A DNA stretch of 64,000 nt from Sphaerolaimus hirsutus (Eukaryota; Nematoda; Chromadorea; Monhysterida; Sphaerolaimidae). The notes below the pieces were generated by a model. The model had not been told where the DNA came from. It did no database searches and was given only the letters and a program-made list of their open reading frames with translations. Positions 1 to 54,363 of the stretch are shown here, in pieces. Each line of letters begins with the position of its first letter. Position 1 is the stretch's first letter. The translations under genes were made by a program, and so were the position numbers. Location of the stretch: contig OZ038451.1 of the NCBI GenBank assembly GCA_964036195.1, positions 12,466,529 to 12,530,528 on the forward strand. Reading direction: 5' to 3'.

Positions 1-5
1 GACTA

Positions 6-449: not shown

Positions 450-1878
450 TATAGGTACCCACTACTCAGAGGCTTGCAAAAACTGACACCCCAATGGGGA
501 CCCCCCTCCAAATGGCACCCCCTGGGGAACCTCCCAAAAGTGGCACCCCCTGGGAACCGCCCAAAAATGGGACCTCCTAGGGCCCCACAAATATGGCACC
601 CCCTGAGGACCACCAGAAAATGGCACCCCTTAGGGACCCCCCAAAAATGGCACCCCCTTGGGACCCCATAAAAATAGCACCCCCTGGGGACCCCCCAAAC
701 ATGGCACCCCCTAGGAACCCCCACAAAAATGGCACCCCCTGGGGACCCACCCAAAGTTGGCTCCCCCTGGGGACTCTCCAAAAATGGCACCCCCCTGGGG
801 ACCCTGTGCATTCTGTGTGGTATAGGTTTTGTGATATGATAGTGTGGTTTTTGCAAGGTGTCAAACTTTGTTGTAATCTTCAATTGGTTACATTTGTGCT
901 TTGCTGTTCTTTTTGTGTTTGTAAATCCTTGTGGTATAAATTGTAGAGAACCACAAAACCCAACTGAAGGTTGGAGAGAATCCTGCTATAGGTACCCACT
1001 ACTCAGAGGCTTGCAAAAACTGACACCCCAGTGGGGACCCCCCTCCAAATGGCACCCCCTGGGGAACCTCCCAAAAGTGGCACCCCCTGGGAACCGCCCA
1101 AAAATGGGACCCCCTAGGGCCCCACAAATATGGCACCCCCTGAGGACCACCAGAAAATGGCACCCCTTAGGGACCCCCCAAAAATGGCACCCCCTTGGGA
1201 CCCCATAAAAATAGCACCCCCTGGGGACCCCCCAAACATGGCACCCCCTAGGAACCCCCACAAAAATGGCACCCCCTGGGGACCCACCCAAAGTTGGCTC
1301 CCCCTGGGGACTCTCCAAAAATGGCACCCCCCTGGGGACCCTGTGCATTCTGTGTGGTATAGGTTTTGTGATATGATAGTGTGGTTTTTGCAAGGTGTCA
1401 AACTTTGTTGTAATCTTCAATTGGTTACATTTGTGCTTTGCTGTTTTTTTTGTGTTTGTAAATCCTTGTGGTATAAATTGTAGAGAACCACAAAACCCAA
1501 CTGAAGGTTGGAGAGAATCCTGCTATAGGTACCCACTACTCAGAGGCTTGCAAAAACTGACACCCCAATGGGGACCCCCCTCCAAATGGCACCCCCTGGG
1601 GAACCTCCCAAAAGTGGCACCCCCTGGGAACCGCCCAAAAATGGGACCCCCTAGGGCCCCACAAATATGGCACCCCCTGAGGACCACCAAAAAATGGCAC
1701 CCCTTAGGGACCCCCCAAAAATGGCACCCCTTAGGGACCCCCCAAAAATAGCACCCCTGGGGACCCCCCAAACATGGCACCCCCTAGGAACCCCCACTAA
1801 AATGGCACCCCCTGGGGACCCACCCAAAGTTGGCTCCCCCTGGGGACTCTACAAAACCCAACTGAAGGTTGGAGAGAA
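268..1878. repeat. 537-bp higher-order tandem repeat, three copies
   Basis: The block starting tgtgcattctgtgtggtatagg at 268 recurs at 805 and 1342, an exact 537-bp step. Each unit joins the right half of the 6-449 MITE to a run of GGCACCCCCTGG minisatellite. The first two units differ by very few bases. A fourth, headless unit begins near 1853. Confidence 0.85.
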
Positions 1879-2447
1879 TCCTGCTTTAGGTACCCACTTC
1901 TCAGAGGCTTGCAAAAACTGACACCCCAATGGGGACCCCCCTCCAAATGGCACCCCCTGGGGAACCCCCCAAAAGTGGCACCCCCTGGGAACCGCCCAAA
2001 AATGGGACCCCCTAGGGCCCCACAAATATGGCACCCCCTGAGGACCACCAGAAAATGGCACCCCTTAGGGACCCCCCAAAAATGGCACCCCCTTGGGACC
2101 CCCCAAAAATAGCACCCCCTGGGGACCCCCCAAACATGGCACCCCCTAGGAACCCCCACAAAAATGGCACCCCCTGGGGACCCACCCAAAGTTGGCTCCC
2201 CCTGGGGACTCTCCAAAAATGGCACCCCCCTGGGGACCCCTCTCAAAATGGCACCCCATATGGACCCCCCCGCAAAAAAAAATATAGCACCCCCCTGAGG
2301 ACCACCAAAAAATGGCACCCCTGGGGACCACCCAAAAAATGGCATCCCATGTGGACCCCCTTTAAATGGCACCCCCATATGTACCTCCAGAAAATGGCAC
2401 CCCCTGGAGACCCCCCAAAAATGGCACCCCATGGGGACCCCCTCTAA
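478..2447. repeat. GC-rich minisatellite, unit ~27 bp
   Basis: Degenerate copies of tggcaccccctggggacc followed by cccaaaaa fill this stretch. The unit length keeps proline/glycine-rich frames open on both strands, which produces spurious ORFs of 60-210 codons. Confidence 0.9.
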
Positions 2448-5090
2448 ATCCTGTAAACACAGTCCCTAGTTTGGAAACTCCTGTAAACTCAGCCCCTAAT
2501 TTGGAAAATGGTATGAATATTTCAAAAAATCACTATCATCAATCCACAAATGCATCAATTCACAATTTTCAATTTTTTAGCCCCAGGGGTTAGACTTAAA
2601 AAGTTATGGTAATGTAGAGTAGAAATGGAGTGCACATCTCAAATCAGTGCAATAAAAAACCCACAAATGCATCATTTCACAAATTGAAAGTTTTTGTGCC
2701 CAGGGGTTCATTATCAGGGTTTTAGTAATGTGGTGTCAAAATGGAGTGCATATTTGAAATCGCTACAATCAGAAACCCACAAACACATCATTTTATGATT
2801 TGAAAATTTTTGGCCCTGGGGGTTCATTTTCAGGGTTATGGTAATGTAGTGTCAAAATGAAGTGCATATTTCAAATCAAGGCAATCAAAAAGCCACAAAT
2901 GCATCATTTCACAATTTCTAATTTATTAGCCCCATGGGTTCAATTTAAGGCTTACAGTAATGTAGAGTTGAAATTGAGTCATTTCAAATCAGTGCAATTA
3001 GAAACCTGCAAAATGCATCATTTCACAATAAGAAATTTTTGGGTCTAGGGGTTCAATTTCAGGGTTTTAGTAATGTAGTGTCAAAATGGAGTGCATATTT
3101 GAAATCGCTACAATCAGAAACCCACAAATGCATCATTTTATGATTTGAAAGTTTTTGGCTTAGGGGGTTTATTTTTATGGTTATGGTAATGTAGTGTGAA
3201 AATGAAGTGCATATTTCAAATGAGTGAAATCAGAAACCTGAAAATTTATGATTTCACAAATTGAAAGTTTTTGGCTCCAGAGGTTCATTTTCAGGGTTAT
3301 GGTTATGTAGTTTTCAGGGTTATGTAGTGTCAAAATGGATTGCATATTTCAAATCAGTGCAATTAGAAACCCACATCAAATCATTTCACAATTTCTAATT
3401 TTTTAAGCCCTGGGCATATTTGAAATTGCTACACTCAGAAACCCACAAATCCATCATTTTATGGTTTGAAAGTTTTTGGCCCAGGGGGTTCATTTTTAGG
3501 GTTATGGTAATGTAGTGTCAAAATGAAGTGCATATTTCAAATGAGTGCTTTCAGAAACCCGAAAATGCATCATTTCTCAAATTGAAAGTATTTGGCCCCA
3601 TGGGTTCATTTTTAGGGTTATGGTAATGTAGTGTCAAAATGGAGTGCATATATCAAATTGGTGCAATCAGAGACCCAAATTTGAAATCAGTGCAATCAGA
3701 AACCCAAAAATGAATGATTTCACAAATTGAAAGTTTTTGGCTCCAGAGCTTCATTTTCAGGGTTATGGTTATGTAGTTTTCAGGGTTATGTAGTGTCAAA
3801 ACAGAGTGCATATTTCAAATCAGTGCAATTAGAAACCCACATTGAATCATTTCACAATTTCTAATTTTTTAAGCCCTGGGCATATTTGAAATCGCTACAC
3901 TCAGAAACCCACAAATCCATCATTTTATGGTTTGAAAGTTTTTGGCCCAGGGGGTTCATTTTAGGGTTATGGTAATGTAGTGTCAAAATGAAGTGCATAT
4001 TTCAAATGAGTGCTATCAGAAACCCAAAAATGCATCATTTCTCAAATTGAAAGTATTTGGCCCCATGGGTTCATTTTTAGGGTTATGGTAATGTAGTGTC
4101 AAAATGGAGTGCATATATCAAATTGGTGCAATCAGAGACCCAAATTTGAAATCAGTGCAATCAGAAACCCAAAAATGAATGATTTCACAAATTGAAAGTT
4201 TTTGGCTCCAGAGGTTCATTTTCAGGGTTATGGTTATGTAGTTTTCAGGGTTATGTAGTGTCAAAACAGAGTGCATATTTCAAATCAGTGCAATTAGAAA
4301 CCCACATTGAATCATTTCACAATTTCTAATTTTTTAAGCCCTGGGCATATTTGAAATTGCTACACTCAGAAACCCACAAATCCATCATTTTATGGTTTGA
4401 AAGTTTTTGGCCCAGGGGGTTCATTTTAGGGTTATGGTTATGTAGTGTCAAAATGATGTGCATATTTCAAATGAGTGCAATCAGAAACCCGAAAATGCAT
4501 CATTTCTCAAATTGAAAGTATTTAACCCCATGGGTCCATTTTGAGGGTTATGGTAATGTAGTGTCAAAATGGAGTGCATGTATCAAATCAGTGCAATCAG
4601 AAACCCAAATTTGAAATCAGTGCAATCAGAAACCCAAAAATGCATCATTTCACAAATTGAAAGTTTTTGGCCCCAGTGGTTCATTTTCAGGGTTATGGTA
4701 ATGTAGTGTCAAAATGAAGTGCATTTTTCAAATGAGTGCAATCAGAAACCCAAAAATGCATCATTTCTCAAATTGAAAGTATTTGGCCCCATGGGTTCAT
4801 TAACGGGTTATGGTAATGTAGTGTCAATGGAGTGCATATATCAAATCAGTGCAATCAGAAACCTAAATTTGAAATCAGTTCAATCAGAAACGCAAAATTG
4901 CATCATTTCACAAATTGAAAGTTTTTGGCCCCAGTGGTTCATTTTCAGGGTTATGGTAATGTAGTGTCAAAATGGAGTGCATTATATATCAAATCAGTGT
5001 AATTAGAAACCCACAATGCATCATTTCACAATTTGAAAGTTTTGGCCCCGGGGGCCTCACTTAAGGATTATGGTAATGTTATTGTTAACT
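2448..5090. repeat. AT-rich satellite, period ~115 bp
   Basis: About twenty imperfect copies of a unit containing gtaatgtagtgtcaaaatg, aatcagaaacccacaaatgc and gaaagtttttggcccc. Some copies carry internal deletions or a duplicated ttttcagggttatg segment, typical of unequal exchange. No gene is visible. Confidence 0.9.
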
Positions 5091-5290: not shown

Positions 5291-6116
5291 CAATTGCATT
5301 CTTGGGAAGCAACTTTGCCATCTACTAACCCTGTTTGTCAAGATTGTGGATCGTGTTTGTAAAGGGCATTTGTACTAATAAATAGTGACTGCATTGTGTG
5401 CAAAAACACACACGAATTGGGCACAATGATGCCTGTGATTGTGTGTCCTATCTTTTACATTAGGCATACCTAGCACGTAATTCTTTCACAATTGTATATG
5501 TTTTGATAGTGCGCTACCGTGGAATTGTGCGCAGTTTTTTTCCGGTAGATTTTATATCTATTGACGTTAAGTACAAGCTCGAGCAATTGCCGATTTTTTC
5601 GAGACAATTCTCGTATGGATGGCGCAGGGTCGTACTAAACCGTATATTCTCGAATAACTCGTCCCCCCTCAAAACCTCAAATGTTTCCCCCTCGAATAAC
5701 ATTCCCTCTTGTATAACTCTCCCTCTGGGTGAAAAATATGCTACAAAATTCATGAAGATGATCGATGAACATACAAAAGAATGTTAAAGTATGGTAGCGA
5801 CAGTAGATACATAACTGTTCAATACCTGGATTACATGAGTTGACAGAATGCATTCATGCAATGAATCGAGTCCCACACTTCTGAGAAAAAATAACTCTCC
5901 TGAATAACTCCCCTCAAAAACGCTGACGAAAAAACTTCCCTGGGGACTTATTTGAGGATATATGGTATTTTCCTAGTGTAGTAACATAATTCATTCAGTT
6001 TGTTTGTGTTTCAGGATAGTTGGGACTTCTCTTGTTTTGGGCAGTAGCTGCCCAGGTCAAGTTTCTGTGGAAAAATAACTCTATCACTTGAATAACTTCT
6101 CCCCCTTGAATACCCA
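5291..6116. other. No gene seen; fragments of the palindromic CGAAATACCCC family
   Basis: Pieces of the hairpin family occur at about 5650-5735, 5893-5975 and 6073-6116. The last is cut by the retroelement LTR at 6117, and matching sequence resumes after the other LTR at 26976. Otherwise nothing is recognised. Confidence 0.5.
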
Positions 6117-6703
6117 TTTTCTATGTGAAGTCAGACCTATACCTTTACAGGCTCCAACATCCACTTTGACTACGACGAGCTTCAGGAGGAGGACAAAGAT
6201 ACCAGGCAGCTTCACCGATACCATGTGATGTTGTACATGTAGGTTTATTTGATGTGATTTGATTGAGAGCTCTCTAGATGAAGTTGTAGGTTCAATGTCG
6301 TGTTCTGAGTTTCTTGTAAGCCGACGCAGCCGGTCGTTGCCCTTGGACACAACTTTATTGATCGTAAAACACTTAAATATATCAAACACTCACGATACTT
6401 GAAACACACGGCACTGAACTTCCACAGCACCTGCCAAGTATACGGGTTCCTCAAATCCAGTCACGAAGACTTTCAGCTACTATTTTCAGCTGCAGCTTAG
6501 CTTTGCTAGCTTGGTATATCTTCACTATTCCGGTTCCGAACCCCGAATACCTGACAGACGCTCTCTTTTATACGCGCCCATCCGCCCACACAAACTTCTC
6601 GCAATAACAATATTGTCGCATCTGATAATTACCATAATCTTAATCACCACCCTGGACTCATGCCAACATAAATCACCACTGCCTAATAACCATGGCAACA
6701 ACA
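6117..6703 (-). repeat. 3' LTR of the retroelement
   Basis: 587 bp shared with 26389-26975 at a constant offset of 20,272. On the minus strand it begins TGTTGTTGCC. The shared block ends AGAAAA rather than CA. A TATAAAA box lies at 6566-6572 and an AATAAA polyadenylation signal at 6354-6359, both on the minus strand and in the right order for U3 then R. The small ORFs inside it are not credible genes. Confidence 0.9.
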
Positions 6704-26061: not shown

Positions 26062-26388
26062 CGTGAGTTTTCGAGTGTGAGCGCCCCTTTATCCTTTTAT
26101 TTACCTACTTCACTCAAGGTTTTCCAATCTGTGAGCTTGCACGATGGCAATGGGTGCTTCGCACCTATTGCACCTGCACTGCGGTGTAAATATAGGCACC
26201 AGGTGCCTATCTTCTGTGTCAAAGCGTCAGACGCTTTCTGCTGTTTGCCAAATGTGGCTACTGTCGCCAAAAGTGGCTTCCCCCCAAAATTTTTCAAAAT
26301 TTGACCCAAATTTCAACTGTCAAAAAAAAATAAAAAATTGTAACGTACCAGGGTCGTACCGTTGCGTGGCGCCACAGACGATCACCAC
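26062..26388 (-). other. Retroelement 5' leader
   Basis: Untranslated sequence between the 5' LTR and gag, with the primer-site candidate at 26368-26374 and a short palindromic AAAAATTTTTTATT-like stretch nearby. No ORF of note. Confidence 0.6.
26368..26374 (-). promoter_or_regulatory. Candidate tRNA primer-binding site
   Basis: TGGCGCC on the minus strand, 14 bp downstream of the LTR boundary. Its complement GGCGCCA matches the 3' end of lysine-type tRNAs, used as primers by many Gypsy elements. The gap to the LTR is longer than the usual 0-5 bp, so this is a candidate only. Confidence 0.45.
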
Positions 26389-26975
26389 TTTTCTATGTGA
26401 AGTCAGACCTATACCTTTACAGGCTCCAACATCCACTTTGACTACGACGAGCTTCAGGAGGAGGACAAAGATACCAGGCAGCTTCACCGATACCATGTGA
26501 TGTTGTACATGTAGGTTTATTTGATGTGATTTGATTGAGAGCTCTCTAGATGAAGTTGTAGGTTCAATGTCGTGTTCTGAGTTTCTTGTAAGCCGACGCA
26601 GCCGGTCGTTGCCCTTGGACACAACTTTATTGATCGTAAAACACTTAAATATATCAAACACTCACGATACTTGAAACACACGGCACTGAACTTCCACAGC
26701 ACCTGCCAAGTATACGGGTTCCTCAAATCCAGTCACGAAGACTTTCAGCTACTATTTTCAGCTGCAGCTTAGCTTTGCTAGCTTGGTATATCTTCACTAT
26801 TCCGGTTCCGAACCCCGAATACCTGACAGACGCTCTCTTTTATACGCGCCCATCCGCCCACACAAACTTCTCGCAATAACAATATTGTCGCATCTGATAA
26901 TTACCATAATCTTAATCACCACCCTGGACTCATGCCAACATAAATCACCACTGCCTAATAACCATGGCAACAACA
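26389..26975 (-). repeat. 5' LTR of the retroelement
   Basis: Copy of the LTR at 6117-6703. On the minus strand, TATAAAA at 26838-26844 is the likely promoter for the whole element and AATAAA lies at 26626-26631. Transcription would run leftward through gag at 26061. Confidence 0.9.
26838..26844 (-). promoter_or_regulatory. TATA box of the 5' LTR
   Basis: TATAAAA on the minus strand, preceded by GCG and followed by GAGAGCG, about 130 bp inside the LTR start and upstream of the AATAAA. The same box is at 6566-6572 in the other LTR. Confidence 0.6.
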
Positions 26976-30745: not shown

Positions 30746-32250
30746 TCAAGCAGCCTCCTCTAGTTCAAAGTAAATGTAAGTCTGGTTGAACGAGAATCCA
30801 AGTGGCATGTCCACGCCATCCTTGACCCACCTGTGCAGCCGGCAGTGGCCGTAATGGGCCGAGTGACTGATGGCCCTGGGGGCACTCCCGGACCCTGTAA
30901 AATGTCACACAAAGTGCTAAACGTCATGCAAAATGCCATGGAAAATGGCAAACGTTTGCCACTTTCGAGGACATTTTACATGACTTTTCACACTTTTAAT
31001 TACAGGACATTGTACAGGGTCTGGGAGTGGCACCTGCACAGCAGCGTGTCGACGCAGCGCTGCACGCAGATGCCCACGTGCGGCATTGCTGTGAAGTCGT
31101 CGATGCGGTAGTTGGGGTCAGTCTCGTAGCCCAATTGATCCCTTGATTTGCCAACGGCGCGCATGGGTCCCCGATACATGCACACTGCCGGGTACATGCT
31201 CCTGTCATCTCTGCATGCACGTTCAGCTATTTATCCTTCCACAAGAAAACTTGCATAATTTGTGAAATTTATCAAACTATGTACTGCATTTCCTCAAAAT
31301 ACCCCCTCGAAATACCGGAAACGGAAACAAAAAAAAATTTTCAGCGGCCGGAAAACGGAACGGAAAACGGAAAAAAATTTGCACTTGGCGGAAAACGGAA
31401 ACGGAAAAAAAATTTCAGCAGCCGGAAAACGGAAAAAGAGGCCGGAAAAACGGAAACGGAAAAATCAAATTTGCACGGAAATGAAAAAACTTGCTGAAAT
31501 TTTGCCGGAAAATGGATAAAATTTGCTGAAATTTTGCTGGAAGTGGAAAAAATTTGCAGTAATTTTGCTGGAAACAGAAATTTTTTTACATCATTGACAA
31601 TCTGCATGAATTTTTACCAGTTTGGCTGATCAGAAAACAGAAAGTTGAGCCAGAAAAAGGTAAAATGAGGCGGAAAAATGGAAAATTGAGATGGAAAATG
31701 GAAAAAAGGCAGAAAAACTGGAAATTGAGGCGGAAAACGGAAAAACAGCGGAAAAACTGAAAATTCAGCCGGAAAACGGAAAATGAGCCGGAAAAACGAA
31801 AACGGAAAAAAAAAGTTGCCGGAAAACGGAACGGAAAACGGAAAAAAAATTTCAGCAGCCGGAAAACGGAACGGAAAACGGAAAAAATTTGCCTGCAGAA
31901 AACGGAAACGGAAAACGGAAATTTGACACCCTAGTTCTGGGCGTTCAAGCAATTCTGGCGAAATAATGAATCCAATCAAAATAACCCCCCTCAAAATTTC
32001 CATTCAAGAAAAATAACCCCCAGGGGTAATTTGAGGAAATACAGTAAGTACTTAGCTGTGTTTTCAACCAACAAATCATTGATGCCCCTAGAATGTATTG
32101 TTGCTATTCCGCAACCGCGCGTGTTGCTTGCAAAGTAATCCGTGATGATAGTGGTGTCTTTGCTCTGGAACCACTTTCGACCATCCGATTGATACCTGAT
32201 CGGGTGGTAAGCGGTTTTTCCGCTATTGAATCCTTCGATGATTGTCAACA
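30746..32250 (-). CDS. Unrecognised gene, last three exons
   Basis: Three exons join in phase: 32052-32250, 31034-31201 and 30746-30875 (stop TGA). Introns are GT-AG: 31202-32051 and 30876-31033. The first is filled by a palindromic element with a GGAAAACGG minisatellite. The second is an introner-like element that splits an Arg codon. The peptide (about 165 residues seen) has several cysteines (VGICVQRCVDTLLCR, HYGHCRL) and looks like a folded, perhaps secreted, domain, ending NQTYIYFELEEAA. I do not recognise the family. Exons upstream on the minus strand are expected; the unrecognised exons between 43566 and 48504 could belong to the same gene. Confidence 0.55.
30876..31033 (-). mobile_element. 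Introner-like element forming a complete intron (158 bp)
   Basis: The intron starts GTGCCACTCCCAGACCCTGTA and ends CAGGGTCCGGGAGTGCCCCCAG, inverted copies of each other around CACTCCCRGACCCTGTA. Its splice sites are the element's ends. The upstream exon ends CAG and the intron ends CAG, fitting a 3-bp target duplication. The middle (gcaaacgtttgcc) is also palindromic. Confidence 0.75.
31283..32045. mobile_element. Palindromic MITE with GGAAAACGGAAA minisatellite
   Basis: Outer ends match the CGAAATACCCC family (left cctcaaaataccccc, right ggtaatttgaggaaatacag). 31313-31930 is a degenerate run of cggaaaacggaaacggaaaa in both phases, ending tttgacaccct. Confidence 0.65.
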
Positions 32251-32858: not shown

Positions 32859-34619
32859 TAGGGTTCAAACGGGATCCTGATCCCGATCCCAAATCCCACG
32901 AAATTTTGGGTTTTTGTGGTCCCGATTCTGATCCCGATCCTGAAACCTCAATCCCGATCCTGATCCTGATCCCAAAATTTGAAAAAGCCAATCCCGATCC
33001 CGACCAGAGATTTTGAAAATCCCAATCCCGATCCCAAAAAAATGCCCCAATCCCGATCTCGATCCCGGAAAACTTCACAGACACAAAAGGTGCCAGAAAT
33101 GACACTCTTAAAGGACCATTTTGTATGCAGTTTGCAAAAAATTTGCGCGCAAGCGCGCATTTCCCCACCTCCCTTTATATCAATGTTGCGGGGGGATGCA
33201 CACCACTACAAATGGACTCGATACAGTGCCCATTACTGTAGTTTAAGGTTAATACACATGCACAGGGTTGGCAAAATCTCAGAAAAGAATAAAAATAAAA
33301 TAAAAATAAAATGGAAAATTGAAGAATAAAATAAAATAAAATAAAATGGAAAATTTCAAAATAAAAATAAAAATTGTATAAAAATTTGAATTTTTCTAAA
33401 AATTTTGTAAAATTGTATACAAATTCATATTTTTGTAAAAAATTGTATAAAAATTCATATTTTTTGTAAAAATTTACTGTTGTTTATAGTTCAACCTGTT
33501 CATTTGCGGAGCTGGGGCAGTCCCAAGCCATGTAAAGTGTCAAAATGTCATATGAAATGGAATGGAAAGTGTCAATTGTCATGAAAATGTTAAGTGTCAA
33601 TTGTCATGACAAACATAAATTTAAGTGGAAACTGTAAAGCAAATTGTATCCAACTCGTATCTTTTGTATCCAAATCTTGTTGTTTTTGTAACCAAATCTT
33701 ATGTGAACATTTGGATACAAAAACATAAGATTTGGATACCAAAATATAAGGTTTGGATACCAAAACATAAGATTCAGATACACAATTTACACTCTGCATG
33801 ACATTTGTCATGACAATTATACTTTGCTTGACATTTGAGATGCCAATTGACTCTTTACTACATTTGTCATGACAATTGACACTTTGCATGATGTTTTACA
33901 AATGCGCCCAGCACACTCCAGTAAACCTTCTACTGAAAATGCAAACCATTCTTATCGATAATTGTAACTTAACACTTGCAACTAGCTAACAATACCTACT
34001 GCATGCAACTTTTGCAAAGTAATGGAAAAATTTGTCACACGTTTTTCATGTTTAGGTTTAATTATCACATTTTTCTGACCTTGCATGCAAGATTCTGATT
34101 TTTTGTAAAATTTCTGTAAAATTTTTGTAAAATGGTCCATTTTATTATTTTATTATTATTTTGGAATAAAATAAAATGAAACAAGAATAAAATAAAAATA
34201 AAATACATTTTTATACAATTTTTATACAATTTGTATACAAATGATTTTTATAAAACCAACCCTGCACATGCATATATGGTAGACAGTGGTGTGAATGACA
34301 ATGCCAAGCAGCCCATTGTGCAGTGCCTAAATGAATCTATAGCATTGTGTTTGGATGCCAATTTGATCCAACGTTTCTGGCATCCATTGTTTTTGATGTT
34401 TTGGGTCGCTTTGTGAAATGTCAGGAAAAAACCCTGAAAACCAATTTTTTAGGCCTCAATCCTGATCCCGAAAAAACGCAAATCCCGATCCCGATCCCAA
34501 AATCTCAAAAAGCCAATCCCGATCCGAAAAGGCCATTCCCGATCCAGATCACGATCCCGAAATATCAAAAAACTAAACCCGATCCGAATCCCAAAAAGTC
34601 AATCCCATTTGAACTCTAG
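32859..34619. mobile_element. hAT-like element with CCCGATCCCGATCC arrays
   Basis: Left end tagggttcaaacgggatc, right end gatcc...catttgaactcta; the same ends flank 51586-52188. Arrays of cccgatcccgatcc occur at 32875-33070 and 34455-34600. The interior was hit by a second element at 33263-34264. Confidence 0.65.
33263..34264. mobile_element. hAT-like element with exact 8-bp target duplication
   Basis: Ends CAGGGTTGG...CCAACCCTG, flanked by CACATGCA at 33255-33262 and 34265-34272. The interior is rich in aaaataaaat and contains an introner-related segment from about 33513 (ctggggcagtcccaagccatg). Confidence 0.8.
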
Positions 34620-37599: not shown

Positions 37600-38104
37600 C
37601 ACCGGGGACCAGGAAACACAGTTGTTAAAATGTACATACATTTACTCGAAAAATACGCATACATGAGTACGCGGTAAATACATTTACATATACTTTTGTA
37701 AAAAGTAATGTACTCACTTTTACGCGTACATTTTAAAAGTACACACGTACAGAGAAAATGTATTTTTTTGCTAAAATCACAATTTTCTGTTGCTAAAATA
37801 ACAAAAAAAAAAGAAGAAATCCATCATTTTTTCTAAAAAATACAAAAAAATCTCTAAAAAAGACATCAAGGTATTCGACATCTTCCAGTGTAAAACGCAC
37901 TCTCACATGTAAAAATTAGTATAAAGTAAAAAGATAGAAAAACATAAGATTTGGATACAATACAATAATATTTGGATACACATGACACTTTACAGGGTCT
38001 TTTACATGACATTTGACACTTTACAGGGTCTTTTACATGTCACATGAAATTTTACAGGGTCTTTCAGGGTCTTACAGAGATTTTTACAGGGTCTGGGAGT
38101 GGCA
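37600..38104. mobile_element. Fragments: GTTGTTAAA element and truncated introner
   Basis: 37611-37760 has acagttgttaaaatgtacat and a tacgcgtac stretch. 37935-38104 carries aacataagatttggatac, repeats of tttacagggtcttttacatg, and an introner end (acagggtctgggagtggcac at about 38084-38104). No exon borders it, so it looks like an element outside a splice context. Confidence 0.5.
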
Positions 38105-39445
38105 CATGATTATAAAATAAATACAGGTATGATACCTGACGGCTTGCAACATTCAAATGATTTGATACTTGATAATGATTTGATCTGATAATGATTTGAT
38201 TGCATTATTCAAATTAGATTGAGTGGTTGGAGGGTGTGACTTTCCAGTCGCTAAATTCAAGTGCCATTCACTAATGTCAGCGACTGCGCGTATATGCGTC
38301 GCCTTGGTGAGGCTAACAGTAGTGATGGAAAAGCGCCAGAAGAAAGGGCGCGATGGCGCCATTCGGAAACTGGGCGCCAAGCGCCAAGAGCGCCACAAAA
38401 AAAGGGCGCCACGGAAAGAGGGCGCCAGGGGCGCCATGGCGCCATTTGAGAAATAGGGCGCCAGGCGCCAGGTTAAATAAGTGCGAACAACACACTATGT
38501 GTGTGCTAAAATATTTCCCTATAACTGTAGTGCACACACTTCGTTTTCCACGTTCTCCAGTATGTAGTGAACAAAAGGAGACTAGCAACGATTTTTGGAT
38601 AAAATCATATTTACCCATGTTCAATTCCAACGCGATGAAAATTGTCATTTGACAAAAAATGTATTCACTTCAAAAAGCGGAAATTATGTTTTCTGTTCAC
38701 AAATGTTTTGTTGAAATGGACGTAAACGGAATTGCAGCAATTTGAACCCGTTGATTTACGGGTTTGCACGTTGGACGGTCCATCATTCTCAGCTTCTGAT
38801 CCGTCAGAAGCATCTGATGTACAAAAGATTTTCATCTAATCGCACCACTTCGTCATTTTCCCAGCAAATTTTGATTAAAACTCGGCGGACTTTTTGGAAG
38901 TCATTGTTCTACGGGATTCTTGTACGAGTGTGACTAATTAAACTTGGCATATGTCCAAGTTTTCGCGTTTCATGCAAAGAAGTTTAACGATGCACGATTT
39001 TTGTTCACGTCGCCAATAATGGCCGCGGAATGCAATTAAGCAAAACTTGTGTTTACTTAATCACATTCAGCGGCCATTATCGTGACGCGAACAGGAATCT
39101 GGCGTCTTTAATCTTTTTGGTATGAAACGCAAGGAATTTGGACGTGTGCCAAATTTCATACGTACTTTTTCGGAGGAATCTATCTGGGCCGCGACGATAA
39201 GATCGGGCCTAATGCCTTACAATCCGACTTTCTGTAACGATATGTCTATCAAATTCATATCGTTCTCTTAGAAAATGTCGGATTGAATTAAATGTATCGT
39301 GAACCGAATGGAATCCGTCCATTCAAGTTCAAATTAAAAAAGATACGTCATTGGGAACCAAGGGCCGAATACCTGATTCGTTTCATGTCCGCCGAGTTTA
39401 TCCACGGCTACGCTTTTTCATTTTTTTCTCAGTTATGCAGCACTC

Positions 39446-41132
39446 CAGAGTTGTTAAAAGGTACGTACGTTTACTCAAAAAATACGCGTACGCGAGTACG
39501 CGGTAAATACGTTTACATATACTTCAAAAAAAAGTAACGTACTCACATGTACGCGTACATTTTTGAGGCATACGCGTAAAGAAAATGTATTTCTGTGAAT
39601 TCAATTTGGCGCATATTTATAAAGTGACTGCGCTGCAATTTACTATATTTCCTTGAAATACCCCTGGGAGTGATTGTTTTATAGTGGCAATTTTGAGGGG
39701 AGTTAAACAAGGGCGGGTATTTCGAGGGGTTTTTTTGCCAGAATTTTTCAGAACTCTCAGCACTAATTCCTTCTTTGTGACATACGCTGAGGTAGAAAAA
39801 TGCAACAACAAGCTCCATGTATAAGAGTATTTTTATTGACTTACGTATATATGTATGTAAATATAGATGGTATACACTCTGTTCTAACGTGACTTGGTCA
39901 TTGTTTAAACATGTGTTCTGCATTTCACATAACACAAACTGAAGGTTTTAATATTTACGTTCCATTTACGTTCAATTTTTTTTTTTTTGGGGGGGGGGGG
40001 CTTTCGACAGGGGGTCAATTATTTGATTCGTAGGGCCATTTTGAGGGTTGTTTTTCAAAAACGTACCCAGTTCTACATATACTATGAAGAAAAGTGCTTG
40101 CTTTTGCATTTTAATGGGAAAAAAATTTTGTACTCACATTTACGCGTGCGTACGAGTAGTGATGGAAAAGCGCCAGAAAAAAGGGCGCCAGGCGCCAATG
40201 GCGCCATGGCGCCATTCAAAAAGTGGGCGCCAAGCGCCAAGGGCGCCGCAGAAAAAGGGCGCCAGGCGCCATGGCGCCATTCAGAAAGCGGGCGCCAGGC
40301 GCCAAGGGCGCCACGGAAAGAGGGCGCCAAGGGCGCCATGGCGCCATTTGAAAAATAGGGCGCCAGGCGCCAAGGGCGCCAGGATAAATAAGTGCATACA
40401 ACACCCTGCGTGTGCTAAAAGTGTTTCTACAGCACCCTAGTACATGCATTCACTACTAAATTTGCGTTCTCCAGGGTGTAATGAACAAAGACAACACTAG
40501 CAACAAAAAAATTCGAGTAAAATTCACATGACAATTCAAACACAATGGATATTGTCATTTGACAACAATCCATTCACTTCAAATTGACTTTTCCAATCAA
40601 TGTTTCCTCAAATGGACAAAAAACGGAATTGCAACAATTTGAATCCGTTGATTTATGATTTTGCAAGTTCAACGTTCCATTGTTCTCGTCTTCTGATCTG
40701 TCAGACACATCTGATGAACCATTGCACAAAAGATTTATACCCACTCACACCACTTCGTCCATTTTTCTGGCGAATTCAGATCATCCATGAATGCGTTTTT
40801 CATCTTTTTTCCATTTATACAGCACTCACCTTGAAACCCTGCTGGCGCCTTTTTTGGCGCCCTTTAAAAGCAGGGCGCCAGGCGCCAAGGGCGCCACGGA
40901 AAAATGGCGCCAAGCGCCAAGGGCGCCATGGCGCCTTTCAGAATGTGGGCGCCAGGCGCCAATGGCGCCACAGAAAAAGGCGCCCTTTGGCGCCCTCAAA
41001 TGGCGCCATTCCATCACTACGTACGAGTAAAAAATAAGTATTTTACGTTTTCGATACTTTGTGGTGAGTAAAAAATAAATACTTTACGTTTACATATACG
41101 TTTAAAAAAGTTCAGTAATTATAACAACTCTG
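39446..41132. mobile_element. hAT-like element CAGAGTTGTT, second level of the nest
   Basis: Ends CAGAGTTGTTAAAAG and ACAACTCTG, flanked by CAGCACTC at 39438-39445 and 41133-41140. Contains tacgcgtacgcgagtacgcg arrays, a palindromic MITE around 39645-40045 and the element 40157-41019. Confidence 0.8.
40157..41019. mobile_element. hAT-like element TAGTGATGG with GGCGCC arrays, innermost
   Basis: TAGTGATGGAAAAGCGCC...GGCGCCATTCCATCACTA, flanked by CGTACGAG at 40149-40156 and 41020-41027. Arrays of gcgccaagggcgccatggc fill 40170-40382 and 40845-41010. The unique interior is homologous to 38473-38900 of the outer element. Confidence 0.85.
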
Positions 41133-41353
41133 CAGCACTCACCTTGAAATCCTGCTGGTGCTATTTTTGCGTCCTTTTATTGCAGGGCGCCAGGCGCCAA
41201 GGGCGCCACGGAAAAAGGGCGCCATGGCGCCTTTCAGAAAGTGGGCGCCAGGCGCCAGGGGCGCCACAGAAAAAGGGCGCCAAGCGCCAATGGCGCCATG
41301 GCGCGGCGCCCTTTGGCGCCATCAAATAGCGCCATTCCATCACTAGCTAACAG

Positions 41354-46220: not shown

Positions 46221-48504
46221 CTCAACGTGGCTGCGCAATTCCAAATACAGTTCACGTCTGAGCCGAGACTGCTCCGACAATACACCAGCATGTGCTTGAA
46301 ACAATTGCTGTGCTGTTCCATCACCACCCCCACTGCCTGCACAAATAAAACACACGTCACTTCACGATAACAAATGACAATGTAAAATTGAGACAAACCA
46401 AAAGCGCTGTCAGAGTCCATGTCATCATAGCCAATTTCATCAAACGTTTCATCACCCACATCAACTTGCAGCACACAGGCAGCGTTACCATCATACTGGG
46501 GGCACTCCCAAACCCTGTAAAAGACCCTGTAAAGTGTAAAAGACCCTGTAAAATGTCATGTGTCATAAATATAAAAGACCCTGCAAAATTTCATGTGTCA
46601 TGTAAAAGACCCTGTAAAGTGTCAAATGTCATGTAAAAGACCCTGTAATGTGTTATGTACATCCAAATCCTATTTAATCATATCCAAATCTTATGTTTTT
46701 GTTTTCAAATCTTACTTTTTGACATAATATTTGGATAGTAAAACATAAAATTTGGATACAAAAGAATAAGGTTTGGATATACATGACACATTACAGGGTT
46801 TTTTACAGGACCGTTGATACTTTACAGGGACTTTTACATGACATGTCATTTTACAGACTCTTTTACATGATACATGACATTTTACAGGTTCTTTTACACT
46901 TTACCGGGTCTTTTACGGGGTATGGGAGTGGCACCTGGTCATCTTCATGGCTTGTAGATGTGTTTTCGAGAGCTGCATCTACATTTTCAGAAGCTTCTGT
47001 TTGGATTCCATTGCCATTTGTAGGTTCCTCATCTAAATTAGAGGTGAAACCATTTGGCAGCACATTTTTCTGGTCAGTATCAATCTGAAGGACTTCTTCA
47101 GGAAGGAAATCATTTGTATCATCAGCAGTGGAATCTGACTGGGTGAGGGATCTGCTTCAAGGAGAAAAATTTCTGAATTTAGCAAATACCTAGGCAAAAA
47201 TAGTGAAATAATTCACATACTTATGCGTATCATTTTCATTGGCAATCTCCGGCTGGGGCAAGTGTAAAAATCTCGGCAAAACACTGCTGTTTTCGGACCT
47301 CGCATTGGCTCTGAAGACTTGCAGTTGTTCTTCCAATTCATTGCGACGGCGCTGCACTTCGGGCCTCTGCATCAATGCCTAAAATTTCACAGAATTCATC
47401 AAATTTAACTCGTAACATCGTGTCTGCGCACACTATTTTTCACAAGAAATTTCGAAAACTCACAAATCAGCTTAGAGCTTAGAGTTGTCTACAATGAGGT
47501 GGCCGTCAACTACAGTTGACGGAGATGAAAAATGACTTTTTTGTGGAAAAATCAAACACTCATTTATGAGTTTTGGGAATTTTGTGTGAAAACTAGTGTG
47601 CGCAGTGCCATCAAACCAAAAATATTCTTTCAAAAATCACAGTCAAATCGGTATTCAATCTGTCCGCAGTGTTGGGCGCGTCGCAGCGGAAGCAGTGCAG
47701 CTGCAGCGGGTTGCCGCTGGCGGCCAGCAGTTCGAACTCAAACTGGGGGCAGTCCCAGACCCTGTAAATCGTCAAATGTCGTGCAAAGTGTCAAAAGTCA
47801 TGTAAAATGCCCGGTAAGATTGCAAACGTACGTTTGCCATTTTACCGGCATTTTACGTCACTTTTGACACTTTGCACGACATTCTAAAGGGCACTTTACA
47901 GGGTCTGGGAGTGGCACCTGAGGCACGGCGATTAAAATGCAGCACAGCACGTCAGAATGTGGTGCCGGCGCGACGGTTGTGAACGTGATGCAGTGGGCCG
48001 GCACCAGGCTCTTGGCGCACTCCTGCTTTAACTTGCCCGACTTGTTCATGATGGGCACGCTCTGCACCACTTTGATGCCCTTGTAGCCGACTTGCAGCTG
48101 CGACCGGACACCGCGATTACGATAAACACAATGGGATCTATCAAAGGCAGCGGGTGTGATGGAAAAGCGCCATAGCGCTGGCACTAGCGCCAAAGGAAAA
48201 AGCGCCATCGCACTTTTGGGTTCTATTTTGCTGTGGCGCCAGGAACAATGCTTAGCGCTAGCGCCATGCCGCTTTTAGCGCTTGGCGCCGAAATCCTGGC
48301 ACTTTTCCCATCACTAGGCAGCGGTAACCACCCAACCGTGATCTTATTGAGCACGCCTCCATCGGCGTTAGCGTCGAGCAGCCGGTACAGGTGCGGCAGT
48401 ACGTAGCGCATGCCGCGCGGCAACGGCACCTCCGCCTGGCCCAACGCGCACACGTAGTACCGCTTGCAGGTCGGCTTGCCCAAGGACGACAGCCAGCCGG
48501 GCAT
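46221..48504 (-). CDS. Unrecognised gene with PTB-like N-terminus, seven exons
   Basis: Start ATG at 48504. Exons 48337-48504, 47918-48097, 47641-47742, 47221-47378, 46935-47151, 46399-46495, 46221-46336 join in consistent phase and give 346 residues before further exons. Residues about 1-150 (KITLQVGYKGIKVV, HCITFTTVAP, LHCFRC) have the strand pattern of a phosphotyrosine-binding domain; inferred, not proven. A charged helical part (RRRNELEEQLQVFRA) and an acidic Ser/Asp-rich region (DEIGYDDMDSDSAFG) follow, suggesting an adaptor protein. Two of the introns are introner-like elements and another holds a 162-bp hAT MITE and yet another a 182-bp MITE. The C-terminal end is unknown; exons at 45923, 45486 and 43566 are candidates. 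Confidence 0.65.
46496..46934 (-). mobile_element. Introner-like element forming a complete intron (439 bp)
   Basis: Starts GTGCCACTCCCATACCCCGTA and ends CAGGGTTTGGGAGTGCCCCCAG, with CAG ending both the upstream exon and the intron. The interior has many tandem, inverted copies of ttttacagggtc/gaccctgtaaaa and the phrase aaatcttatg, also seen at 33700 and 37940. Confidence 0.75.
47424..47605. mobile_element. 182-bp MITE, CTGCGCACACTA family
   Basis: ctgcgcacactatttttcac at the left, gtgaaaactagtgtgcgcag at the right, centre gtcaactacagttgac. A second copy is at 62989-63181. It lies in an intron of the PTB-like gene. Confidence 0.8.
47743..47917 (-). mobile_element. Introner-like element forming a complete intron (175 bp)
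   Basis: Starts GTGCCACTCCCAGACCCTGTAAA and ends TTTACAGGGTCTGGGACTGCCCCCAG, nearly perfect inverted ends, with CAG on both sides. The centre (caaacgtacgtttg) is palindromic. It falls within the PTB-like domain coding sequence in phase 0. Confidence 0.8.
48155..48316. mobile_element. 162-bp hAT-like MITE in an intron
   Basis: gtgtgatggaaaagcgcc...ttcccatcacta, flanked by GGCAGCGG at 48147-48154 and 48317-48324. Same family as 40157-41019 but short, with TAGCGCTGGC variants inside. It makes up most of the intron 48098-48336. Confidence 0.8.
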
Positions 48505-49533: not shown

Positions 49534-52500
49534 CTAACTGGATTCAAACTTCCAACTTTTCCACTGATCCTTTGGCAATGCCCGCCAATTAGGCGACTGT
49601 TTACCGGCTGCGAGCCAACTAAAATCTTGAATCTCCTTCCACTTGTTGGGCCGGTTGATGTCGAGCCCGGCGGAGCTGAACAGTTCCTTCATTTTCTCGT
49701 CGCCGATGCCATCGAGCAGGTATGGCTGAACCTGCGAAATGGTATGCGGCGATTTGTAGTTGCAACAGCAGATTGGCGGTCCACACAGCAGTTGTCACGC
49801 GTGTGTCAACTGGTCTGTGTCAACTCAGATTACCGCAACACGTCTTCACGCTTAGGGTTGGCCGATGTTTTTTAAACGTTTTTTTTTTAAAAACACGAGG
49901 TCCGAAACGTTGTTTTGTTTAAAACATCGGCCAAAATTTTTAGTACTAAGCAGTAGGTATTTTGCAAACTTTTTGCGCGCAAGCGCGCAATTTCACACAC
50001 AAATTGACATTGGTGGTTGTTTTCATTGGTTTCGTGGCATTTTAAGTATCAAAGCATCCATTTCTATGTGCTACCATGGGTAAATAAGCCGTCATATGTT
50101 GCTGTAGTATATAATATTCAATAAATGTGCTTCCATGTACCTCCACAGTGTGTAACATCACTCCCAAATTAAACACTGTGCTGTGCAGTGGGTCACTGGA
50201 CATCAGAAATTTTTTTTTTGAAAATAGATGCACTGTGGGGCGTGATGTCATAGGTATGCGAAAAAAGAGTGTTCTAATAAAGACGAGAATATGCTGACAT
50301 GCCTCTTCCCACCCCAAAGTAACAACCTCCTTTTATAACCTTGTTTGATCACTATTCCGTCCCAAACTTTACTTGAAGTCACGAACATTCGACTATAAGG
50401 CGATATATGAACATGTCGACAAAAATGGACATTTTTGACACAAATCACCACTTATAATGCTATCCCATGGCTCCACAACCATTAACTGGTCATGTATAAC
50501 ATCACGAGTATTGTCACTTGTCTGATATACCTATATATGATGACCCAGGAACATATATGGGAGCAATAAAAAAAACGTAAAAAAAAAGTTTTTAAAAACA
50601 AACAAACATGGCGTTAAAAAAACGTTTTTTCCAACCCTAGTCACGCTTCATGTTCACAGAGCGATCTCCAAATGCACATGCGGCAATGTTAAAAATAACT
50701 ACCTATTACGGCATTGGAAGATCGCTCTGCGACAAGTGAAGCTGAAATGTGGGTTGACACAGACCAGTCGACACACACGGTGTCAGGGCCGTATCCAGGG
50801 GGGGGCGGGGGGGGGGGCTGCAGCCCCCCCCCTCCCGGGGTGAGACCAAAAAGTGACCGGAAAATGCGACTTTTTCAATGTCAGCGTAAAAAATTTTGCG
50901 CGCAAGCGCGCATTCTTCACCAGACATAAGGTATTATCATCGGATTTGCTCCATGTGGCAACAAATCGTTATAAATACACTCATTGTTGTGTTTTTTGCT
51001 GTTTTTATGTATATTTACATACATATACAGCATTCCATGGCGCTGACGCCAACGCCAATGGCGCCATGGCGTGGCGCCTACCAATGGCGCCAGTGCCATG
51101 GCGCCATTCCGCCACTATGTAGCTAAAATTTTAGGGGGGGGGGGGGCTGAGCCCCCCCCCCCCCCCTCGCCGGCCTCCGTAAACAAGCAGCCCCCCCCGC
51201 TCAAAAATCCTGGATACGTCCCTGCACGGTGTAAAATTCTTGACGCAAAATAATCGGTGCAAAAAAATCCAACAAAGCCCACATCGATCTGGGCGCAGCT
51301 CTCCATGATGGCGGCACCGGTCACGTGCAGGGCCACGGTGCACTCGGAGCTGGTGTGCGCGCGCAGCTGCTGGCAGCACACCACGAACGTGCACCGCACG
51401 CAGTCTTCCACGAAGACAGATGTGCGAGTCTGTGAGGTGTGACGAAAGTTGTGATATTTCCGTTGTAGACATGTAAACACACATCGACATTAAACACCGA
51501 TGTGGTATAAGATAACAAGCATTTTTCCGATGTAAATATCAATGGAGAAACGTTTATCAAAATAACGATATTGGCGAGTCACACATAGGGTTCAAACGGG
51601 ATTGACTTTTCGGGATCGGGATCGGGATTCACTTTTTGAGATTTCGGGATCGGGATCGGGATTGGGATTGGGGTTTCGGGATCGGGATCGGGATCGGGAT
51701 TGGTTTTTTGAGATTTCGGGATCGGGATCGGGATCGGGATTGGCCGGGATTGGGGTCACGGGATCGGGATCGGGATTGGGATAGGCATTTTTCCGGGATC
51801 GGGATTGGGTTCTAAGGATAGATATTTTGGCCATTTTTCTGGCATTCACAGTTGTTCATAAAGGTCTCAAAACACTGTTGGATGCCAGAAAAGTGGCATA
51901 AAATTGACACTGGGGGTTTGCATCCACTTTTTTGCATGCAAAAACGTCATTATTTCACTTTTTATTATTTCCACTAATTTTTCCGGGATCGGGATCCCGG
52001 ACTTGGGAGTTTCTCGGGATCGGGATCGGGATTTGAAAACTTTCGGGATCGGGATCGGGATTGGTATTTTTGAGATTTCGGGATCGGGATCGGGATTGGG
52101 GTTTCGGGATCGGGATCGGGATCGGGACTGGTAAATCCCGGAATTTCACGGGATCCGGGATCGGGATCGGGATCCCGTTTGAACCCTAGTCACACACTAG
52201 GTGCATGTTTTCCAACTGGTCTGTGTCAACTAAGATTCCAGCTTCACGTGTTGTTGAGCGATATTGCAATGCACTTGCCGTAATATTTATTTTTCAACAT
52301 TGTCGCATGTGAATTTGGAGATCGCTCTGCGAAACGTGAAGGCGAAATCCGAGTTGACAAAGACTAGTTGACACACAAGTGTCAACAGTGTGCGGGCCGC
52401 CATCGACGTGTCACACCACCAACAACCCTATCAACGGCAATCTTCACACTCATTTCATCAAAGCTCCAACGCACCGGCGCCGCAACCAGCACACATCCAA

Positions 52501-54363
52501 CACATCTGGCCACGTGCAGCGTGCCCGCCCCGCCCGGCAGAAACACGCGACAATCAGTCAAATCGGCCAGCGTAACGTCGCGCCCGTCGGTCGCCTCGGC
52601 GGGCAGCGTGTGAGACCCGCCCGACAGGTTGGCCAGGTCGCACGGCGTGCACAGAGCGGACACCAACGCCGACATGCCCGTTGACTGTGGGTGGTTTGCA
52701 AATTTGGGGGTATTTGGGTCCACATACACTAAATAGTTGACATCAAATGTTGTGTCAACTAAATTTTGGTTAATTTTGTGATGTCAACTTTCCTATGTGA
52801 TAGAGCATAGTTAATTTTAAATAGTGACACTTAATTTCCATTGTTTTTATCATGTGTGATGCATTAGAAAATTTTTTGGTGATATTTAGTTGACATTCAG
52901 TTGACACGAATTTTCGATGTCAACTGGTGCGTGTGACCTTTATGGACACTAGTCGAATGAGCAAGCGGTGAGCTCAGGCGCAAGTGCGTTAAACACATTT
53001 CAGAGCACGAAATGATGAAGCTATTGGTCTCACTAAATAGTTGGACAAAAATGCTTTCAAATAAATACGCTCCGTTCCCGTCAACTAAAATGCGTTGAAA
53101 ATAGATTTGAGGTTTGCGTAGCCGACGACCACGTAGCCAGTCATGTACCCATTTACTTCAAAGTATACTGCTGAAATAGGTGCAAACCCACCTTCTGTTG
53201 GGCTTCAATCGGTTTGGGAGCGTCACTTTTCTTCGCCGGAGGGTCAGACCTCGGCTTGAACGAGAATCCGGTTTTTGGTTTATATTCCCGCTGCATAGCC
53301 ACATACGCGATGCGCACCTGTAAAAAATAGGGACAGTACAGAGCCTGACAGGTGATAGAATGTGGGGAAAACTAGGGTTGGCAAACGTAGTAAATCTTCA
53401 ACATTCAAAAAATAGTAAATCTTTAACATTCAAAAACTATTTTTATCGAAATTACAACAACAACAACATTCAAAAAAGCCAACTTCCTCAAGCTGCTGTA
53501 GCGCCTTGCGCGCATCATAAGATGGCAATATGGCTTCATTTTCCCCGATCAACCCAGCCATGGCATCTATCTCAGCGCCGAGCTTAGCCAATGACTCTTC
53601 CAAATTGGCTCCGCCTTCTTTCTGGGATTGCGCGATGGCTTTAGCGTTCTCGTGGCGCGATGCGAACGAATTCAGGAAGTCGACGAGCAGGGGATCGCGG
53701 CCAACTGTCCCAGCTGGTTCGGCTGAGATGATTTGAGGCTTTTTTTCTAAACTAAAAGTCGACAAAATGCGATTTTGAGTCAATCGCATTTAGTGTCAGA
53801 TCCAATTCACAGCCTGTGGTGATGTCCAATTTGGCTCTATCATGCCTACACTAAGTTCCATATGTTGACAATAAAGTGTCACATTTTGAGCCTTTGAGTC
53901 ACTCACACTCTCAACGTATATGTAAAAATGGGGTGTCCATAAAATTCCATTCGCAAGTGCAAAACTGTTTTGGGGAGGGAAATGGACTTTTCGACTACTT
54001 GCGCGCGAGAACATATTTGTTCCCGGCGACGCTGAGGCTGCCTTATGAACAATTTATGGACTTGCCGACGTTTGCCAATTTTCCCTCAAAAATGTCAAAT
54101 TTAGCACTATCATATGATGTGATGTCAAAAAATTAAAGTAAAATTATAAAACATGTAAGGGAGTAGCCCCAAATGACGTTTCTGAGTCTAAATAGAAATT
54201 CTCATATTTTGCACTTGTCGAATTTTTGGACCGCCTCATTTACAATTGGACATTTCAGCGGTGGCCGTGCAAATTCCTAGAACTCACCGCTATCGGTCTT
54301 GGCGACATTCCTTGCCTCTAGACGAGCGATCATTTTGGCCCGCTTGTCATCTATCGACGCCAT
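49534..54363 (-). CDS. TBCC: Tubulin-specific chaperone C (tubulin cofactor C)
   Basis: Six exons in perfect phase: 54288-54363, 53484-53746, 53192-53317, 52475-52684, 51283-51429, 49534-49731 (stop TAG), 339 codons; human TBCC is about 346. Exon 2 gives the N-terminal helical, tubulin-binding part (FLNSFASRHENAKA). Exon 3 is the basic linker (FSFKPRSD). Exons 4-5 form the beta-helical C-CAP/cofactor C domain, with CCQQLRAH carrying the Arg finger (about R248) that with cofactors D and E triggers GTP hydrolysis by tubulin. Exon 6 has the typical end (DFSWLAAGKQSPNW). The protein acts in the cytosol in folding alpha/beta-tubulin dimers. All introns are GT-AG and several hold hAT-type MITEs. 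The start ATG is preceded by an in-context GTTAACC. Confidence 0.93.
49853..50639. mobile_element. hAT-like element in the last TBCC intron
   Basis: tagggttggccgatg...tttttccaaccctag. Flanks ttcacgct (49845-49852) and gtcacgct (50640-50647), 7/8 identical. Contains the palindrome tgcgcgcaagcgcgca near 49974. Related copy at 59736-60220. Confidence 0.75.
50784..51224. mobile_element. hAT-like element in the last TBCC intron, exact 8-bp duplication
   Basis: CAGGGCCGTATCCAGG...CCTGGATACGTCCCTG, flanked by CACGGTGT at 50776-50783 and 51225-51232. Inside: g- and c-runs, tgcgcgcaagcgcgca near 50897 and a short GGCGCC element at about 51030-51118. Confidence 0.85.
51586..52188. mobile_element. hAT-like element with GGGATCGGGATCGGG arrays
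   Basis: TAGGGTTCAAACGGGAT...ATCCCGTTTGAACCCTA, flanked by GTCACACA at 51578-51585 and 52189-52196. Two arrays of cgggatcgggatcgggattgg surround a short unique centre. Lies in TBCC intron 4. Confidence 0.85.
52735..53180. other. TBCC intron 3 with a repeat related to 49272-49490
   Basis: 52737-52925 has agttgacatc words, tgatagagcat and an end-to-end inverted layout like the 49272 MITE. The rest is unremarkable. Confidence 0.45.
53790..54285 (-). other. TBCC intron 1
   Basis: GT-AG intron between the first two coding exons (53747-54287). No repeat ends seen; AT-rich. Confidence 0.5.

What the first reader, a model, noticed from the sequence alone, without database searches (positions are those of the whole stretch)
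47743..47917. Introner-like element creating an intron inside a conserved-looking domain
The 175-bp intron is one inverted-repeat element: GTGCCACTCCCAGACCCTG at the 5' splice site and its inverse, ending CCCCCAG, at the 3' splice site. CAG ends both the upstream exon and the intron. Together with 30876-31033 and 46496-46934, three introns of the same strand share these ends, which points to intron gain by a DNA transposon whose target CAG supplies the splice signal. Introners of this kind are known from a limited number of lineages.
Basis: partly seen in the sequence, partly recalled or inferred. Interest (0 to 1): 0.92.

Follow-up and report, generated by a model that had tools for sequence, protein, structure and literature searches.

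The report
Jumping DNA that becomes introns
A small hairpin-shaped mobile DNA element has inserted many times across this animal-like genome, and several copies sit inside protein-coding genes just where a removable intron would lie, so the genome looks like a natural record of how new introns are born.

Summary
47743-47917 is a 175-bp inverted-repeat element whose ends coincide exactly with a GT..AG intron (minus strand); 30876-31033 and 46496-46934 do the same. The window lies in a 348-Mb assembly where one exact 19-mer end occurs 1,399 times (reversed control 0). In 28 preset 10-kb samples I found 20 two-ended copies. Seven of the 20 lie inside recognisable coding domains (DNA primase large subunit, trypsin, an IGF2BP-like KH domain, four in one receptor gene); removing exactly the element rejoins the domain. 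Flanks are mostly CAG or CTG (36 of 55 ends), as for the CWG-target NuwaI group of Harbinger-like transposons. Best model: a non-autonomous element carries the GT donor in one end; the target CAG, found on both sides, ends the upstream exon and supplies the AG acceptor. Three of eight domain-supported insertions end in CTG, so exact removal would need GT-TG splicing. No RNA data, orthologues or species name were available; duplication of the target is only moderately supported (12 of 16 pairs), and 13 of the 20 sampled copies showed no domain-level coding support.

The parts
47743..47917 (-). introner-type intron e1, 175 bp, GT..AG, phase 0, foldback element
   Evidence: if retained, a stop 57 nt into the intron
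47918..47920 (-). CAG ending the upstream exon (5' copy of the putative target triplet); its partner CAG is 47743-47745, the 3' splice site
46496..46934 (-). introner-type intron e3, 439 bp, same gene, phase 0, longer foldback with internal repeats
   Evidence: if retained, a stop 69 nt into the intron
30876..31033 (-). introner-type intron e2, 158 bp, phase 2, inside a PAN_1-like domain
   Evidence: PAN_1 matched only when the two exons are joined (E 8e-4, 19.6 bits, below the curated 21.4); if retained, a stop 31 nt into the intron
46221..48504 (-). host gene of e1 and e3: exons 48504-48337, 48097-47918, 47742-47641, 47378-47221, 47154-46935, 46495-46399, 46336-46221; 347 aa open; start, ordinary splice sites and 3' end are my choice by eye
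   Evidence: no named domain; no homologue found with a slightly different 306-aa model
30746..30875 (-). last exon of the PAN-like gene, ending at a stop codon
48098..48336 (-). ordinary intron of the same gene holding an unrelated inverted-repeat element inside its splice sites (contrast case)
   Evidence: about 20 nt from the donor, read by eye
47379..47640 (-). second ordinary intron holding an unrelated inverted repeat inside it (contrast case)
   Evidence: inverted repeat read by eye
37979..38108 (-). half copy: donor-type end GTGCCACTCCCAGACCCTG flanked by CAT, other arm lost
33511..33901 (.). degraded long relative of the family

Best explanation
The three introns are copies of a non-autonomous inverted-repeat DNA transposon (a foldback MITE) that creates introns on insertion. 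Its target is CWG, which seems to be duplicated. One end begins GTGCC and supplies the 5' splice site; the other end reads ...CCCC and is followed by the second target copy. When the target reads CAG in the sense direction, the transcript holds CAG|GTGCC...CCCCCAG|, so one triplet ends the upstream exon and its twin is the 3' splice site, and removal restores the interrupted reading frame. The whole intron can fold into one hairpin that brings both splice sites together. Shown here: repeat family, exact coincidence with frame and domain interruptions, CWG flanks, hairpin potential. Inferred: duplication rather than mere target preference, actual splicing, a Harbinger/NuwaI-type transposase, gain rather than replacement.
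For: Both ends coincide with GT..AG at 3 of 3 window loci; frames rejoin, and each intron would bring an early stop if kept. PAN_1 seen only when exons are joined. In the genome, the domain profile continues across the exact excision point: primase halves match positions 202-240 and 242-266, joined 202-266 at E 7.9e-13; trypsin 178-220 at 1.2e-12, no gap at the junction in the three alignments shown; KH_1 7.5e-12; a receptor with four such junctions 7tm_1 1.2e-9 over residues 10-213, the junctions lying after residues 53, 115, 167 and 194, none of five tested pieces alone giving 7tm_1. All 8 domain-supported insertions (5 genes) have the GT end upstream (two-sided p 0.008); ten further joined frames of non-supported copies, 7 of them in the opposite orientation, gave no domain. 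36 of 55 ends are flanked by CWG with no flank criterion against 2.8% background; 12 of 16 pairs with CWG at both ends have the same triplet. 1,399 exact copies of one end, reversed control 0. NuwaI elements have CWG duplications and occur mainly in animals (PMC4482050 passages).
Against: No RNA evidence. 4 of 16 both-CWG pairs differ in the middle base, and outside the window the agreement (9 of 13) is not significant, so CWG could be a target or terminal preference without duplication. 13 of 20 sampled two-ended copies had no domain-supported coding context. Three of the 8 supported insertions would need a TG acceptor. The KH alignment has small gaps next to the junction; PAN_1 is below its curated cut-off. 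The receptor insertion L028 9221-9545 is a weak copy (29.7 and 22.5 bits for its halves; reversed-sequence control reaches 28.3) and its two triplets differ. No transposase was looked for. Copies are 74% alike over their length (e1 against e2), so the gains need not be recent.
Confidence: 0.85

Rival explanations
1. The element inserted into introns that already existed and the remaining old intron sequence was lost, so nothing was gained.
For: Unrelated inverted-repeat elements do sit inside two ordinary introns of the same gene (by eye), so insertion into introns happens here.
Against: Those two lie inside their introns, whereas the family's copies end exactly at both splice sites in 3 of 3 window introns and at the domain junctions in 4 further genes; repeated loss of every flanking intron base on both sides is unlikely.
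Confidence: 0.06
2. Copies spread as RNA by reverse splicing, as proposed for Micromonas introners, and the inverted repeat is incidental.
For: The 8 copies in coding domains are all in the splicing orientation; reverse splicing was proposed in PMC3879977 (passages).
Against: Inverted-repeat ends, CWG flanks, copies flanked by CTG (not the end of a usual spliced intron) and copies without coding support fit DNA transposition better.
Confidence: 0.05
3. The gene models are wrong: the elements interrupt pseudogenes or untranslated sequence and are not removed.
For: No transcripts available; insertions with CTG cannot be removed by GT-AG splicing at the element ends.
Against: Eight insertions in five genes interrupt otherwise open, domain-bearing frames exactly; the joined frames used have no stops across the junctions.
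Confidence: 0.04

Closest known systems
Introners with DNA-transposon features (Gozashti et al. 2022, PMC9860276; abstract, Results and Discussion, method sections 15, 23, 26 and passages seen)
   Same: Introns alike to near the splice sites, terminal inverted repeats, flanking repeats that contribute a splice site; [quoted passage not shown] copepods are among the hosts.
   Different: Here the target is CWG and the same triplet ends the exon and gives the acceptor; 15 of the 36 CWG-flanked ends read CTG. I did not see the supplementary family tables, so this family may be listed there.
NuwaI group of PHIS (PIF/Harbinger-related) transposons (PMC4482050; abstract and passages seen)
   Same: 3-bp CWG duplications, mainly in animals.
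   Different: No transposase or terminal match was tested here; in the passages I saw these elements are not described as introns.
Micromonas IE-B/IE-D introner elements with GT-TG splice sites (PMC3879977; passages seen)
   Same: Repeat introns with GT-TG boundaries.
   Different: Different lineage, no CWG target in the passages seen; GT-TG is only predicted here.
Eurytemora affinis private introns with GA/GG donors (PMC5714493; main text read)
   Same: A crustacean genome with an explosion of private introns and unusual splice sites, AG obligate at the exon end before those donors.
   Different: There the donor is unusual and RNA reads prove it; here the acceptor would be unusual and no transcripts were available.
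Maize Ds insertions that are spliced as introns (recalled, no call)
   Same: A DNA transposon whose target duplication helps to form splice sites.
   Different: hAT element with 8-bp duplications; single alleles (recalled).

Membership tests
Introner (intron-generating repeat) | Several introns alike up to both splice sites | tested here: met
   3 of 3 named window introns, 26-nt ends 88-96% alike
Introner (intron-generating repeat) | Not explained by paralogous genes | tested here: met
   Hosts differ: PAN-like, unnamed 7-exon gene, primase, trypsin, KH, 7tm; e1 and e3 lie in one gene at different places
Introner (intron-generating repeat) | Insertion at a place without an intron in relatives | not testable with these tools
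   Tool says this genome has no relatives held; no homologue in the protein collection
Introner (intron-generating repeat) | Spliced in RNA | not testable with these tools
   No RNA data
DNA transposon / MITE | Terminal inverted repeats | tested here: met
   22, 21 and 21 of 26 terminal bases agree between the two ends of e1, e2, e3; e1 arms 82%
DNA transposon / MITE | Target site duplication | tested here: inconclusive
   12 of 16 both-CWG pairs identical, one-sided p 0.038; 9 of 13 without the window, p 0.13
NuwaI (PHIS superfamily) | CWG at the insertion site | tested here: met
   36 of 55 ends, no flank criterion
NuwaI (PHIS superfamily) | Harbinger-like DDE transposase with the same ends | not tested
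   Genome search tool was mostly busy; no family search was made

The most novel reading that the evidence does not exclude
Because the target is CWG, insertions into CTG (sense) create introns bounded by GT and TG, and this animal's spliceosome removes them, so one transposon family generates two classes of intron, canonical and GT-TG, decided by the middle base of the target. The trypsin (L020), receptor (L028 9624-9818) and primase (L005) insertions would be such introns.
Probability: 0.45. Interest if true: 0.88.

Novelty: new variant of a known kind. Interest (0 to 1): 0.77.

Why it matters
How introns arise is a long-standing question, and in the 2022 survey only two animal groups had introners (PMC9860276). 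Here one family with thousands of recognisable ends in a 348-Mb genome (2,183 CAG-flanked donor ends and 1,185 CTG-flanked acceptor ends) suggests a simple route: an element with a built-in GT and a target triplet that is itself a splice signal. CAG and CTG insertions form a natural experiment on what a 3' splice site must be, and each insertion's effect could be read from one RNA-seq set.

Tried and rejected
Homologues of the spliced products: none (306 aa, PAN-like 97 aa). A weak PDB match of the e1/e3 gene to a bacterial protein (E about 0.03-0.08) was dismissed as chance. That the e1 region is a PTB domain was my recall of the fold and got no support. Exact 19-mer hits in viral contigs (2 loci with one match each, read) were taken as chance; two other end patterns gave 0 and prokaryote contigs 0. 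Rfam gave nothing in the window at gathering scores. The receptor had no PDB sequence match at 1e-3 but matches 7tm_1. Reversed sequence gives 20 hits to the element model, up to 28.3 bits, block-shuffled sequence 0, so the weak clusters among the 53 are not counted as copies. In one search three end coordinates were off by 1-2 bases; the corrected table is. Literature: introner with Harbinger gave 1 paper (listing only); with introns and target site duplication added, 0; the library holds open-licence papers only.

Full report
What is at the place. On the minus strand, 47743-47917 reads CAG|GTGCCACTCCCAGACCCTG ... GGGTCTGGGACTGCCCCCAG|TTTGAG. It is 175 bp, not a multiple of three, and if kept would bring a stop after 57 nt. 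Its arms are 82% alike and as RNA it can fold into one hairpin (-98.9 kcal/mol against a shuffled mean of -41.25, z -13.5). The introns 30876-31033 and 46496-46934 have the same ends (26-nt ends 88-96% alike) and fold alike (z -11.9 and -24.5). Chance is excluded for the ends: 7 matches in the window, 0 in 100 shuffles.

Gene context in the window. 47743-47917 and 46496-46934 interrupt one gene for which a 7-exon, 347-aa open frame can be written from 48504 to 46221 (ordinary splice sites chosen by eye). Its spliced models have no Pfam match (first model, two core segments at E up to 10) and no homologue in the protein collection (first model); one single-exon frame had a sub-threshold match, E 0.023. 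30876-31033 interrupts a PAN_1-like domain: the two exons joined match at E 8e-4 (19.6 bits, cut-off 21.4), each alone does not match. Two ordinary introns of the first gene (48098-48336, 47379-47640) hold unrelated inverted repeats that stop short of the splice sites (by eye; coordinates), in contrast to the family, which ends exactly at them.

Genome. The window is C2:12466529-12530528 of an assembly of 348,482,957 bases in 762 contigs; GTGCCACTCCCAGACCCTG occurs 698 + 701 times, its reversed control 0. I fetched 28 stretches of 10 kb at preset positions on five contigs (274.6 kb without N). They hold 20 two-ended copies (corrected ends). The four in L007 are not independent: two share the left flank and two others share a coding-like right flank. 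Extrapolated, 20 in 274.6 kb would mean of the order of ten thousand or more copies; this is an inference from few stretches.

Copies in coding domains. Removing exactly the element rejoins: DNA primase large subunit (L005 9319-9501; joined PF04104 E 7.9e-13, halves matching profile 202-240 and 242-266; 21 of 22 PDB matches are primase large subunits, no gap at the junction in the three alignments shown); trypsin C-terminus (L020 5630-5800; 1.2e-12, no gap at the junction in the three alignments shown); a KH domain nearest to IGF2BP proteins (L018 1005-1199; 7.5e-12, with small gaps beside the junction); and a rhodopsin-family receptor with four insertions (L028 8282-8477, 8879-9067, 9221-9545, 9624-9818; 7tm_1 1.2e-9 over residues 10-213 of 233, junctions after residues 53, 115, 167, 194). 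The third of these is the weakest copy (29.7 and 22.5 bits for its halves). With 30876-31033 that makes 8 domain-supported insertions in 5 genes; in 8 of 8 the GT-bearing end is upstream (two-sided p 0.008). L009 7062-7216 (sub-threshold match only, E 0.075) and the two insertions of the 7-exon gene have open joined frames without a named domain. Of the other copies I tested joined frames of L008, L009 932-1118, L011 and L022 (none at 0.1) and, mostly in the opposite orientation (7 of 10), of L007, L008, L009 and L017 (none at 0.01). L004, L026, L028 843-1018 and L007 6148-7333 were not sent to Pfam: the first three showed no long joined frame, the last I did not choose. So 7 of the 20 sampled copies are supported as coding and 13 are not.

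Target. Scanning for the 19-nt core alone (up to 4 mismatches) in the window and the 28 stretches, 36 of 55 ends are preceded, four bases further out, by CAG (21) or CTG (15); the background for these two triplets is 2.8%. Among 25 two-ended copies (with L031 and the window) 38 of 50 ends are CWG; 16 have CWG at both ends and in 12 the two triplets are the same (one-sided p 0.038); without the window 9 of 13 (p 0.13). The model that found these ends had the flank positions in it, so 38 of 50 may be biased upward; 36 of 55 is not. On the first 11.8 Mb of C1, 22 of 44 listed 19-mer donor ends have CAG, and of 100 CAG-flanked donor ends 1 has a strict CTG acceptor end within 700 bp; the matching CAG acceptor list could not be obtained, so this says little. 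CWG duplications characterise the NuwaI group of Harbinger-related transposons (PMC4482050 passages); membership was not tested by transposase.

Mechanism. The element brings GT in its asymmetric end; the target triplet serves as the last bases of the exon and, in its second copy, as the acceptor. CAG gives CAG|GT...CAG|. CTG gives CTG|GT...CTG|. Of the 8 domain-supported insertions 5 end in AG and 3 in TG (L005, L020, L028 9624-9818). The nearest upstream AG lies 8 nt (L020) and 11 nt (L028) before the element end, which would shift the frame, and 9 nt (L005), which would add three residues. In human genes TG acceptors are alternatives, and the authors infer that they depend on a nearby AG and cannot work constitutively (PMC2374985, outline and section 7), which speaks against the bold reading; GT-TG is reported for two Micromonas introner classes (PMC3879977 passages), which speaks for it. 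Whether TG is used here is open; an unspliced or damaged allele is the alternative.

Comparison. Introners with TIRs and duplications that lend a splice site are known (PMC9860276), animals being represented by two groups in that survey. Crustacean relevance: copepods are named there, a copepod has many private introns with odd donors (PMC5714493), and the best PDB match of the trypsin piece is a 'hepatopancreas trypsin', which I recall as a crayfish entry. None of this identifies the species, and the family may already be in tables I could not read.

Noticed in passing
window 6112-26683: A roughly 20-kb LTR-type element (300-nt stretches 6112-6411 and 26384-26683 99% alike) with a gag frame (Retrotrans_gag) and one uninterrupted 5026-aa frame in which a match to class III viral fusion proteins lies upstream of protease, reverse transcriptase, RNase H and integrase matches: an unusual order.
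   Followed up: partly
L028 8125-9935: One receptor gene with four introner-type insertions plus one ordinary intron within about 2 kb.
   Followed up: yes
L005 3270-3489, L014 8314-8554: A sibling family with the same outer ends but another core (GTGCCAGTTCCGCAAATTGAGAA), flanked by CTG or CAG.
   Followed up: partly
window 38313-41304: Repeats rich in GGCGCC; by eye a similar stretch lies in the ordinary intron 48098-48336.
   Followed up: no
window 1-5080: Long tandem arrays with 27-nt and 116/145-nt units.
   Followed up: no
window 52385-53789: Minus-strand frames matching tubulin binding cofactor C (TBCC_N E 1.4e-6; TBCC E 8e-4, below its cut-off).
   Followed up: no
window 30876-31033, 46496-46934, 47743-47917: The family's acceptors have only a few C before CAG and no long pyrimidine tract; two of the four ordinary acceptors of the same gene are T-rich. 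The hairpin may compensate.
   Followed up: no
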